Below are positions 14,299 through 64,000 of a stretch of DNA of 64,000 nt, piece by piece. The stretch's first letter is position 1. Each line of letters begins with the position of its first letter. Source of the DNA: Owenia fusiformis (taxonomy: Eukaryota > Annelida > Polychaeta > Sabellida > Oweniidae); contig CAIIXF020000001.1 of NCBI GenBank assembly GCA_903813345.2, positions 15,087,915 to 15,151,914 on the forward strand, read 5' to 3'. The notes beneath the pieces were generated by a model. The model was not told where the DNA came from, did not search any database, and was given only the letters and a program-made list of their open reading frames with translations. Both the position numbers and the translations under genes were made by a program.

Positions 14299-17200
14299 TT
14301 ATTTCATATTACAGGGTTGAGGCGCAGCAACTATTCTCCTGTTAGCTTCCATCCTTACTGCAATTTGGTAAGTGTAACCCGAATATGACCTACATGTAAC
14401 TAGCTGTACACATACCTATTCCAATGACTGAGAAGATACTGAGGGCAAGAGAAAAGAAGTACAGTGTCCCTGTAGTCACGCTCTGAAATGAAAAATCAAG
14501 AAAAATCATCACAGGATTCATGAATATTTACACCATTATATTCATACAGCTTGATAATGCATCTGTGAGATAGCTTCATAACCATGAAACTGCATTGCAT
14601 TCATGAGATATGCACATATTCATATGATACTGCATCGATTGAGCATGATACTGGATTCTCATGATATTTACACCATTGTATTCATACATGCAGAGATAAT
14701 AATAATGCATTTCATGATACTGATCTCATTTGTGGAGGTGCATATTCTCTGGATATTTACACTTGTATTCATAGAGCATGATATTGAAATCATCAGATAT
14801 GATACAGGATGATACATGCACTGCTTTCTCTGTATATTTACTTGTACACGTCCATTGTATCCAGCATGATACTGCATTTATGCGGCATATGATGTTGAAT
14901 TCAAGACATATGATAGGCCTATACTGCATTCATGGGGCATATAATTATAATGAATTCAAGACATATGATAATGCATTCATGGGCATATAATGATAATGAA
15001 TTCAAGACATATGATACTGCATTCATGGGGCATATGATAATGAATTCAAGACATATGATACTGCATTAATGGGGCATATGATAATGAATTCAAGATATAT
15101 AATACTGCATTCATAGAGCATATGATGTTGAATTCAAGACATGTGATACTGCATTCATGGGGCATATGATAATGAATTCAAGATATATGATACTGCATTC
15201 ATGGGGCATATGATGTTGAATTCAAGACATGTGATACTGCATTCATGGGGCATATGATAATGAATTCAAGATATATGATACTGCATTCATGGGGCATATG
15301 ATGTTGAATTCAAGACATGTGATACTGCATTCATGGGGCATATGATGTTGAATTCAAGACATATGATTCTGCATTCATGGGGCATATAATGATAATGAAT
15401 TCAAGACATATGATACTGCATTCATTGGGCATATAATGATAGTGAATTCAAGACATATGATTCTGCATCCATGGGGCATATAATGAAGTTGTATTCAAGA
15501 CATATGATACTGCATTCATGGGGCATATGATGTTGAATTCAATACATATGATACTGCATTCATGGGGCATATAATGATAATGAATTCAAGACATGATACT
15601 GCATTCATGGGGCATATGATGTTGAATTCAAGACATATGATACTGCATTCAAAGGGCATCTAATGATAATGAATTCAAGACATATGATACTGCATTCATG
15701 GGGCATATGATGTAGAATTCAAGACATATCATACTGCATTAATGGGGCATAAGATGTTGAATTCAAGACATATCATACTTCATTCATGGGGCATATAATG
15801 ATAATGAATTCAAGACATATGATACTGCATTCATGGGGCATATGATGTTGAATTCAAGACATATGATACTGCATTCATGGGGCATATGATAATGAACTCA
15901 AGATATATGATAATTGTACTGCATTCATAGGGCATATGATAAGTAATTCAAGATATATGATACGTGTACTGCATTCATGGGGCAATTACTTCATTCAATG
16001 GATATTTACACCATGTATTCTATTCATATGCACATTAGCCTACACGTGACATTTGGCAGTAATGTATGAACAATGAACATTGAATAACTGGATGTAGAAG
16101 TCTACTTACACATTCGCCTGCCAGTGAAACAAATATTGTCAGTAGCAACCCGGAAAGATATGTGATGCCTCCAAATATGTGAAATGCCAGTTTCACTTCC
16201 CATGGTATAGGGTCCATAATGGAAAATAGCACAGAAAAACCTAAAAAACACAATGCTATATGTTTTCTTTTTTGATAATTGCTGGCAACATGTACTGTAC
16301 ATGTACAAATTCACATAAGTATTTGGTATAAGTCAAGTAAAATAGTAAAATGGTTTCACCAATACAACAGTTTTGCATAAAGGTACTGTAAGTTATAAGT
16401 AAGATAGTTAAGGTACAGCTGGAAAGTAACATTTTGGTAAAAAATTGCTATACCTGCACATGTTAGTTTCTGGTACAAAATTAAGTATGAAGGCATGTGT
16501 ATATTTTCAAATGTGTTTAAACAATGTTGTAATTCAACTCACCTGACATGCAAAATGTGTTTATACAATGTTGTAATTCAACTCACCTGACAAGCAACAT
16601 GTGTTTATACAATGTTGTGATTCAACTCACCTGACATGCACAATGTGTTTATACAATGTTGTGATTCAACTCACCTGACATGCACAATGTGTTTATACAA
16701 TGTTGTAATTTAACTCACCTGACATGCAAAATGTGTTTATACAATGTTGTAATTCAACTCACCTGACAAGCAAAATGTGTTTATACAATGTTGTGATTCA
16801 ACTCACCTGACATGCACAATGTGTTTATACAATGTTGTTATTCAACTCACCTGACATGCACAATGTGTTTATACAATGTTGTAATTCAACTCACCTGACA
16901 AGCAAAATGTGTTTATACAATGTTGTAATTCAACTCACCTGACATGCAAAATGTGTTTATACGATGTTGTAATTCAACTCACCTGACATGCAAAATGTGT
17001 TTAGGCCTATACAATGTTGTAATTCAACTCATCTGACATGCACAATGTGTTTATACAATGTTGTAATTTAACTCACCTGACATGCAAAATGTGTTTATAC
17101 AATGTTGTAATTCAACTCACCTGACATGCAAAATGTGTTTACACAATGTTGTAATTCAACTCACCTGACATGCAAAATGTGTTTATACAATGTTGTAATT

Positions 17201-19106
17201 CAACTCACCTGACATGCAAAATGTATACAATGTTGTAATTCAACTCACCTATCATGCAAAATGTGTACACAATTGAGACAATGAGGAATTCAAACAGGTG
17301 TTGTCCACAGAACCTTGCAGACTCTGGCGTTGCAAGTACAAATATTTGAGGAATCAGGAATGCAAGTGTTAAGAGGAGAATGAATATTCGCCTGAAAATA
17401 AATGAAACATAATTAATTCAACTCTTATCAGTTTGCTGTTGAGTGTATTCACATTTTGTCTTTCCCTTCTGTCTACTGCTGAGTACATGTCATGGGTCTG
17501 AGAACATGTATAAAAATGGAGTCTGAGTCCCCTTCTACTTTGGACTACAAGACTCACTTAATTATACATGTTCTTGAGCCTATGTTACATGTATTCATGT
17601 GCACATGTATGTGCTAATGTGAAACATTTGTTACGGAAGAAGGTAGGTCACAACTCACAAGTTCAAATTAAATGGAATAATCCAGATTGCTGACAATTAA
17701 TTAACTGTACAGTAGAACCTGTATATCTGAACACCTGGCTAATCCGAACACCTTCCAATTTGAACACTTTTTTTTCGGTCCCATTTTTTCCTCCCATTGA
17801 CTCCCATGTTAAATAAACCTCGAAATCTGAACTCCTCCTAATCTGAACATTGAACAACCAGATATGAAAAAGTGACCTGTCTAATCTGAACATTTTTATC
17901 AGAAATCAAATGTCTGGACATTTCAATAATAGCCACATATTGAGTCAATGTTATTATTGTTATTTATCTATACATATACATGTACAATGTAATCAAAGAA
18001 CCAATACTGTCCTAATTAACTTATTTAGGCTCAGTGACCATCCCTTATTTGTGGAAAACAACAGGATGATTTGAAAAGGTGTGAATACAGGAGTTAATTG
18101 GTTTATCCTATTAGAAAAGAACTGAATGTTTTATGTTTGGATTAAGAGAAAGGTGTGAATCAAGAAGATAATTGATTTATCATTATTGGAAATTACCTGG
18201 ATGTTTTTGATTTGGATTAGATAAAGGTGAGAATCTGGGAGATAATTGGTTTATCCTTATTGTAAATTAACTGGATGTTTTTGATTTGGATTATGAACAG
18301 GTCTCAGATGTTTTATATCCCATGGGTCTGTTATCTGGTTATGATAGCTAAGATTCAATCAGTAAATGTTTTATAATCACAAAGACAACACAGACACAAC
18401 TGCAGACAAGATTTCACGAGAAAGAGAAAAAATTCAACTTCATAATATCCTATCACTAAAATGCCTCCTAAAAAGGGAGGATTATACATTATCTCGAATG
18501 AATTCACACTCATGAAAAATTATTTTTACTTGAAGAGGATATCTACTCAAATATTGCTAATGCTAAAAGTGCCAAAAAACAACATGAAGGACTTTTTCAA
18601 GCAAAAGTAAAGCAGTACGTGCTATATAACCATAATATGGGATAAGTCATTTGAGAAGCAGTAAGATTTCGTACGAGACTATCATATACAAAATTTTTGC
18701 CAAAATATAAGTTATTTTTACTAAAATAATGAAATTGTTCAAAATGTAAATAAAAATAGCATAAACTCATCAACAACATGTATTGTTTTCTGACTTAGTA
18801 TAAGTGTTCAATATAGTGGACTGAACAATGAAAATCCCCCCCCCCCATCAACAATATCCTCGAAATTTGAACACCTGCCAATTTGAACGCTTTTGGCTGG
18901 TCCCATGGGTGTTTGGATTAGACAGGTTTTACTGTAATGTGTACAGATTATTGACATAGACAAGAAATCTAGTTCATACATGCATAAACCTGTAAACAAA
19001 GAGGTATTCAAATACTTACACTTTAGATCTGTTTGTCCTAGGGAACCATCTAATTAAGTGGAAGACCCCATGGGCCCATAAATATTGCCACACCATTGCT
19101 TGTAGT
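14299..19106 (-). CDS. FRAG1/PGAP2/DRAM-family-like multipass membrane protein (N terminus not found)
   Basis: Five minus-strand exons join in frame with GT-AG introns: 19020-19106, 17249-17391, 16110-16240, 14416-14482 and 14299-14357 (stop at 14299-14301). They encode about 162 residues. The order is YLWAHGVFHLIRWFPR, a helix (LTLAFLIPQIFVL), a second helix (FLIVSIVYTFCMIGFSVLF), then KLAFHIFGGITYLSGLLLTI, and a last helix after a conserved-looking Cys-x4-Gly (FFSLALSIFSVIGI). The short polar tail ends APQPCNMK. The spacing resembles the FRAG1/DRAM/Sfk1 superfamily (PGAP2: Y-x-W...LH, then E/L-rich helix, then K-LF...C-x-x-G-x-YT). PGAP2 acts on GPI-anchor lipids in the Golgi; that function is not shown here. 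The first exon(s) with the start codon should lie beyond 19106 but were not found. The 17249 donor is copied many times in the next intron. Confidence 0.6.
14590..15990. repeat. ~45-bp minisatellite, about 24 regular units
   Basis: The unit is roughly 'gatactgcattcatggggcatatgatgttgaattcaagacat', with a variant carrying 'ataatgataatgaattc'. Regular units run from about 14890 to 15990, with decayed flanking units back to 14590. It lies in the intron between the 16110-16240 and 14416-14482 exons of the FRAG1-like gene. No open frame is conserved. Confidence 0.9.
16511..17262 (-). repeat. 44-bp minisatellite reiterating an exon end and 5' splice site
   Basis: Seventeen units are present at 44-bp spacing. 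On the minus strand each carries TTTTGCATGTCAGGTGAGTT or a close variant. The last unit at the high-coordinate end is the real end of the 17249-17391 exon (TTTTGCATGATAG then GTGAGTTG). Sixteen copies therefore lie in the following intron, and fifteen of them keep GTGAGT; the copy near 17024 has AT for GT. Confidence 0.95.
17710..18934. mobile_element. pogo/Tigger-like TA-flanked element, 1,225 bp
   Basis: The ends read TA then CAGTAGAACCTGTATATCTG, and at the right, inverted, CAGTAAAACCTGTCTAATCC then TA. CAGTARAACCTGT termini with TA duplication are typical of pogo-class Tc1/mariner elements. Inner segments of 'tctgaacacc ... aatctgaacatt' type are repeated. No transposase frame survives. 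It lies in the intron before the 17249-17391 exon. A related 776-bp copy is at 62433-63208. Confidence 0.75.

Positions 19107-53423: not shown

Positions 53424-64000
<10,577 letters not shown>

What the first reader, a model, noticed from the sequence alone, without database searches (positions are those of the whole stretch)
16511..17391. Minisatellite that multiplies a functional 5' splice site
The exon at 17249-17391 (minus) ends TTTTGCATGATAG|GTGAGTTG. The following intron begins with sixteen further 44-bp units, each carrying TTTTGCATGTCAG|GTGAGTT or a close variant. Fifteen keep an intact GTGAGT donor. The array therefore reiterates an exon end plus donor, and each unit ends in CAG next to GTGAGT, so it could serve as acceptor or donor. 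This might cause variable exon ends, act as U1 decoys, or allow recursive splicing. It apparently arose by expansion of a unit spanning the exon-intron boundary.
Basis: seen in the sequence. Interest (0 to 1): 0.75.

Follow-up and report, generated by a model that had tools for sequence, protein, structure and literature searches.

The report
Minisatellite copying an exon's splice donor
In an invertebrate genome, probably a marine worm's, a short stretch spanning the end of an exon and its splice signal has been copied sixteen times into the following intron, and similar expansions sit at the edges of other genes there, a little-known kind of DNA change described before mainly in amphioxus.

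Summary
The predicted exon 17391-17249 (minus) ends ATAG|GTGAGTTG; sixteen further units follow, 14 of 16 at 44-bp steps, 15 of 16 with GTGAGT. The exon's last bases align with the unit (0 of 5,000 shuffles as good).

Best reading: a 'mirage', a minisatellite made from an exon-intron border, the term used for amphioxus genes. A human minisatellite giving multiple splice donors is known to me by title.

The genome (498 Mb, annelid linker-protein domain present) holds more. Of 36 donor-motif arrays examined, ours included, 28 have a visible exon at or near the first unit, 13 with Pfam matches, some below cut-off. At CTDNEP1, INTS9, SMC4 and PLC-delta, joining through the exon-proximal donor gives a conserved protein without a gap at the junction. 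Acceptor-side arrays exist too.

Most likely mechanism: tandem expansion across a splice junction, nearly silent because splicing keeps the exon-proximal site. No RNA was available, so donor use is inferred. Recursive splicing is unlikely; decoy or variable-end functions are untested. The host gene is an ab initio prediction without a known relative.

The parts
17249..17391 (-). Predicted coding exon (143 bp), ends ..ATGATAG; encodes RIFILLLTLAFLIPQIFVLATPESARFCGQHLFEFLIVSIVYTFCMI|G
   Evidence: Open frame, acceptor TTTCATTTATTTTCAG, donor GTGAGT; no homologue found; codon score negative
17247..17248 (-). Exon-proximal (presumed authentic) GT donor, context TAG|GTGAGTTG
   Evidence: U1 duplex energy -10.6 kcal/mol
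16509..17266 (-). Minisatellite, period 44 bp, 17.2 copies, 92% matches; 16 donor-like units after the exon's own, 15 with GTGAGT, one ATGAGT (unit at 17035)
   Evidence: at up to 3 mismatches the unit is found only here in the genome (15 of 15 hits)
16110..16240 (-). Next predicted exon, phase-consistent: GFSVLFSIMDPIPWEVKLAFHIFGGITYLSGLLLTIFVSLAGEC
14416..14482 (-). Following predicted exon: SVTTGTLYFFSLALSIFSVIGIG
14866..15963 (-). Second minisatellite in the same predicted gene (44-bp unit, no donor motif), in mid-intron: not an exon-border array
   Evidence: unit not significantly similar to the first array's (173 of 2,000 shuffles as good)

Best explanation
It is an exon-border minisatellite ('mirage'). 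A 44-bp segment made of about 27 bases like the exon end and 17 bases of the intron start was duplicated in tandem, and the array grew by slippage or unequal exchange. Because every copy lies on the intron side of the first donor, splicing that keeps using the exon-proximal donor removes the whole array with the intron, so the expansion is close to silent and can accumulate. The copies are spare donor-like sites with at most low use. Shown: the array, its similarity to the exon end, recurrence of the architecture at other genes, and four conserved proteins that continue without a gap at the exon-proximal site. Inferred: the growth mechanism, the choice of donor in the cell, and near-neutrality.
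For: Array and exon-tail similarity. Of 20 CAGGTRAGT arrays (19 fetched plus ours; the distinct arrays among the first 100 places listed in each), 16 have a visible exon ending at or near the first unit: 9 with Pfam matches (the INTS9-type match is below Pfam's cut-off, and the queries for CTDNEP, INTS9, SMC and PLC included the next exon) and 7 by open frame and splice signals only, ours included; 4 show none. Of 16 AAGGTRAGT arrays (first 100 of 181 places), 12 show an exon: 4 with Pfam matches (Tudor and I-set over cut-off, FANCI E 5.7e-6 and MIR E 0.0027 below it), 3 where I recognise the family from memory, 5 by open frame only; 4 none. Joined through the exon-proximal donor, four proteins align without a gap at the junction to solved relatives: SMC4, INTS9, PLC-delta1, CTDNEP1. 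Acceptor side: 5 of 8 arrays fetched by eye run into an exon at the last unit, three with Pfam matches, one of them below cut-off. An exon-end score is higher for arrays than for 40 unselected motif sites (all arrays, automatic donor choice, p = 0.0002).
Against: No RNA data, so donor use is unobserved. The host exon scores poorly for codon usage and has no homologue. For the 20 CAG arrays alone with automatic donor choice the difference from unselected sites is not significant (p = 0.076). Neither the 20 arrays nor the 40 sites passed the 99th percentile of negatives. Some exon-adjacent arrays show little exon-tail similarity (L003 6 of 6 nt, L020 8 of 10 nt), so not every array near an exon is a clean border copy. 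In PLC-delta (48 bp) and, over part of the array, the matrixin gene (72 bp) the units are in frame and open, so copies could be translated there; L019 (54 bp) is likewise open over the stretch listed.
Confidence: 0.75

Rival explanations
1. Regulatory donor cluster: the copies compete for U1 or are used as alternative donors, giving truncated, decay-prone transcripts and so tuning expression with copy number.
For: 15 of 16 copies pair better with U1 than the real donor (-12.2 against -10.6 kcal/mol) and read-through meets TGA after 42 nt; a human minisatellite is reported, by its title, to provide multiple splice donors (reference seen).
Against: Units and periods differ from array to array, which fits by-products better than a selected device; the amphioxus globin paper says that mirages do not seem to interfere with regular splicing (passages).
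Confidence: 0.14
2. Ordinary intronic minisatellite whose unit contains a donor-like word by chance and that merely sits close to an exon.
For: The two other large arrays of the window lie in mid-intron; the reversed motif also forms 9 arrays; two other 28-mers of the window match the unit as well as the exon tail does.
Against: The unit matches the exon's last bases in register with its donor; 28 of 36 donor-motif arrays have a visible exon at or near the first unit.
Confidence: 0.08
3. Recursive splicing or zero-length exons: each CAG|GTGAGT unit acts as acceptor then donor.
For: 15 of 16 units have the AG|GT arrangement.
Against: Weak pyrimidine tracts (8-10 of 15) and no yTnAy site in the stretch inspected; 44-bp steps are very short for introns (general knowledge).
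Confidence: 0.03

Closest known systems
Amphioxus 'mirages' (Adh, globins BflGb6 and BflGb9, PGBD5, TnC)
   Same: Tandem minisatellite-like copies of an exon-intron border, many with AG/GT signals, at 5' or 3' borders, without apparent effect on regular splicing (PMC3087553, passages; PMC3902484, one passage)
   Different: Here a genome with an annelid-type domain, several dozen loci sampled at once, and no RNA evidence
Minisatellite with multiple splice donor sites in a human interferon-induced transcript (NAR 1995; the gene name 6-16/IFI6/G1P3 from context and recall)
   Same: Minisatellite units provide splice donors
   Different: Only the reference was seen; the paper is not held
Intron gain by tandem duplication
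   Same: Duplication creates new potential splice pairs (PMC4974935, listing; PMC2812944, passages)
   Different: Here the intron already exists and only grows; no new intron shown

Membership tests
Amphioxus-type mirage | Tandem minisatellite in an intron touching an exon | tested here: met
   the exon is an ab initio prediction
Amphioxus-type mirage | Unit spans the exon-intron boundary (copies exon end and splice signal) | tested here: met
   Exon tail aligns with unit, 0 of 5,000 shuffles; GTGAGT in 15 of 16 copies
Amphioxus-type mirage | Regular splicing from the exon-proximal copy | not testable with these tools
   No RNA for this locus; supported indirectly at four other genes
Amphioxus-type mirage | Length instability between haplotypes | not testable with these tools
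   One assembly; the array is found once
Amphioxus-type mirage | Host is a cephalochordate (not part of the definition, but so in the cases read about) | tested here: not met
   Annelid erythrocruorin linker domain, 3 matches over cut-off, one with a stop inside; species not proven
Recursive splicing ratchet site | Strong polypyrimidine tract and branch point before AG|GT | tested here: not met
   8-10 of 15 pyrimidines in the 15 AG|GT units; no yTnAy in 16700-16800; a simple score, not a trained model

The most novel reading that the evidence does not exclude
In this annelid-like genome splice junctions, donor and acceptor alike, are recurrent seeds of minisatellites, so that many conserved genes carry arrays of spare splice sites next to an exon. 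If junctions seed arrays more often than other DNA does, a transcription- or splicing-linked process makes them fragile, and the arrays are a standing supply of sites for new exon ends and new introns. That would make the amphioxus mirages one case of a wider animal phenomenon.
Probability: 0.35. Interest if true: 0.7.

Novelty: new member of a known kind. Interest (0 to 1): 0.45.

Why it matters
Each array is a natural test of how the spliceosome picks one donor among many equal or better ones, and the conserved genes found here (SMC4, INTS9, CTDNEP1, PLC-delta and others) would let the question be answered with RNA-seq. If junctions are real hot spots, they link splice-site sequence to DNA instability and to the birth of introns and exon variants.

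Tried and rejected
Species identity: no cox1 match in the assembly; a paper search on the assembly size found nothing; the annelid linker domain and the size compared with Owenia fusiformis (505.8 Mb, 12 scaffolds, passages) point to an annelid, species not proven.

Naming the host gene: no match in Pfam, PDB sequences or elsewhere in the genome (only its own three exons).

Counting arrays as proof of a hot spot: triple-motif hits exceed the reversed control (CAGGTRAGT gap 20-50: 316 against 71; gap 36-66: 188 against 50; AAGGTRAGT 181 against 131; TTTTCAGG 286 against 55), but single motifs do too (8,875 against 6,057; 55,592 against 23,493), hits overlap, long arrays dominate, and only the first 100 places are listed. 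The 20 CAG arrays pool two gap ranges, the 9 control arrays (complete list) come from one, so array numbers are not comparable. I claim no hot spot from these counts.

Window array 61375-62278 (CCCCAAG|GTAAAG units) looked like a second case but lies between two exons of a spermidine synthase gene, away from both. Array 14866-15963 lacks a donor and is not related to the first.

Selection and controls: the 8 acceptor arrays were picked by eye from the 100 places, some because the unit looked coding, so 5 of 8 is not an unbiased rate. The donor of 5 of the 20 CAG arrays was set by hand and in one of two versions. The 40 control sites (every other one of the first 80 of 100 listed places) all lie in the first 4.9 Mb of contig C1 and are CAG sites, also when compared with AAG arrays. 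The leave-one-out dropped the array's own exon but not the next exon of the same gene.

Full report
The array. On the minus strand, a predicted 143-bp exon (17391-17249) ends ATGATAG|GTGAGTTG and is followed by 16 further donor-like units. Spacings are 40 (first), 50 (once) and 44 bp (14 times); 15 of 16 have GTGAGT and one ATGAGT. Tandem Repeats Finder gives 16509-17266, period 44, 17.2 copies. At up to 3 mismatches the unit is found only here in the genome (15 of 15 hits). The exon's end aligns with the unit with one substitution and a two-base gap over 23 unit bases (score 16, 0 of 5,000 shuffles as good). Outside the array, one minus-strand and one plus-strand 28-mer of the window, sampled every 7 bases, also reach 16, so the weight lies in the match being in register with the donor. 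A unit thus has about 27 exon-like and 17 intron bases.

The host gene. This exon and the next two (16240-16110, 14482-14416) have open frames in agreeing phase and usable splice signals, and encode hydrophobic stretches. No relative was found in Pfam, PDB sequences or elsewhere in the genome. A codon-usage score was negative for this exon, so the gene remains an ab initio prediction.

What the copies could do. The real donor pairs with U1 at -10.6 kcal/mol, 15 copies at -12.2, the ATGAGT copy at -5.5. Reading on past the real donor meets TGA after 42 nt, at the second donor, so the third and later donors would give truncated proteins. As acceptors the copies are mediocre: 8-10 pyrimidines of 15 against 12 for the exon's own acceptor and 10 for the next exon's; no yTnAy site in 16700-16800.

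The same architecture elsewhere. I searched the whole genome (498,259,871 bases, 525 contigs) for three CAGGTRAGT words at 20-50 or 36-66 base gaps. The first 100 places listed by each make 20 distinct arrays, ours included; I fetched about 4 kb upstream of the other 19. In 16 of 20 an exon ends at or near the first unit: 9 with Pfam matches (INTS9-type below cut-off), 7 by frame and splice signals only, 4 none. Three AAGGTRAGT words gave 16 arrays among the first 100 of 181 places; 12 of 16 show an exon: 4 with Pfam matches (Tudor, I-set; FANCI and MIR below cut-off), 3 that I recognise from memory (ABCC transporter, neuronal calcium sensor type, DIP2; no Pfam match), 5 by frame only, 4 none. 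At SMC4, INTS9, PLC-delta and CTDNEP1 I joined the exon to the next through the exon-proximal donor; each product aligns with a solved relative without a gap at the junction (the PLC alignment has a one-residue gap elsewhere). In PLC-delta (48 bp) and over part of the matrixin array (72 bp) the units are in frame and open, so inner donors could add repeats there.

Acceptor borders. Three TTTTCAGG words at 20-50 base gaps gave 286 places against 55 for the reversed motif. Of 8 arrays fetched, chosen by eye, 5 run into an exon at the last unit: septin (recognised from memory, not searched), alanyl-tRNA synthetase (from memory; Pfam match only E 0.034), an SBF-like transporter (E 0.00045, below cut-off), a C2H2 zinc finger and a sodium:solute symporter (over cut-off). 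Three show none.

Is this more than motif frequency? Donor words lie partly at real donors anyway. I therefore scored 40 unselected CAGGTRAGT sites (all from the first 4.9 Mb of C1) with the same exon-end score. Trained on window genes only, numbers above the 90th percentile of negatives are: unselected 7 of 40; CAG arrays 9 of 20 with automatic donor choice and 12 of 20 with the exon-proximal donor (5 set by hand); AAG arrays 13 of 16. Mann-Whitney p against the unselected sites: 0.076, 0.006, 0.0000036, and 0.0002 for all arrays with automatic choice. In an earlier version, trained also on array exons with the array's own left out (exon-proximal donors), 12 of 20 arrays and 6 of 40 sites passed the 95th percentile; none in either set passed the 99th. 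The arrays thus seem to favour exon ends beyond the motif's own bias, with the caveats above. Whether junctions give birth to arrays more often, or arrays elsewhere are removed by selection, is not settled.

Relation to known cases. Tandem minisatellites of exon-intron borders were named mirages in amphioxus Adh; the globin paper (passages read) describes AG/GT in many units, both borders affected, length instability, splicing apparently undisturbed, and proposes intron gain; the PGBD5 paper (one passage) adds PGBD5 and mentions TnC. A human minisatellite with multiple splice donors in an interferon-induced transcript is known to me by title from a reference list. In the open-licence library, one search named annelids (one paper, on earthworm metallothionein; its passages, speak of intronic minisatellites, not of border copies), and general searches listed no annelid border-copy report that I recognised from titles and abstracts; subscription journals are mostly not held.

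The organism. Three matches over cut-off to the annelid erythrocruorin linker domain at C6:27.03-27.05 Mb, one with a stop inside, indicate an annelid. Size, and contigs of 32-62 Mb among those seen (C1-C8), resemble Owenia fusiformis (505.8 Mb, 12 chromosome-scale scaffolds, passages). The species is not proven.

Verdict. Real, explained as a mirage-type exon-border minisatellite, probably in a phylum where I found no report of it. Shown: sequence anatomy, recurrence, gapless junctions at four genes. Inferred: expansion mechanism, donor choice, near-neutrality.

Noticed in passing
61375-62278 (+): 43-bp minisatellite with CCCCAAG|GTAAAG donor-like units inside an intron of a spermidine synthase gene (coding stretches near 57240-57332 and 63310-63470); no exon seen at its edge.
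   Followed up: partly
14866-15963: Second 44-bp minisatellite in the same predicted gene as the finding, without donor motif; same period as the first but not similar in sequence.
   Followed up: partly
L016 with L025 (PLC-delta), L008 with L027 (matrixin), L019: Exon-border arrays with in-frame units (48, 72, 54 bp), open over the whole or part of the array, that could be translated as protein repeats if inner donors were used.
   Followed up: partly
L087 (C3:2523500-2524300): Acceptor-side array repeating the start of what looks like a septin P-loop exon (ESGLGKSTLINSLF), with CAG and AAG variants of the acceptor among the units.
   Followed up: partly
18068-18302: Tandem repeat of 3.2 copies, 74 bp, upstream of the exon.
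   Followed up: no
54619-54693 (-) and 57101-57172 (-): tRNA-Ser (GGA) gene found by both tools; a second tRNA-like match found by Rfam but not by ARAGORN.
   Followed up: no
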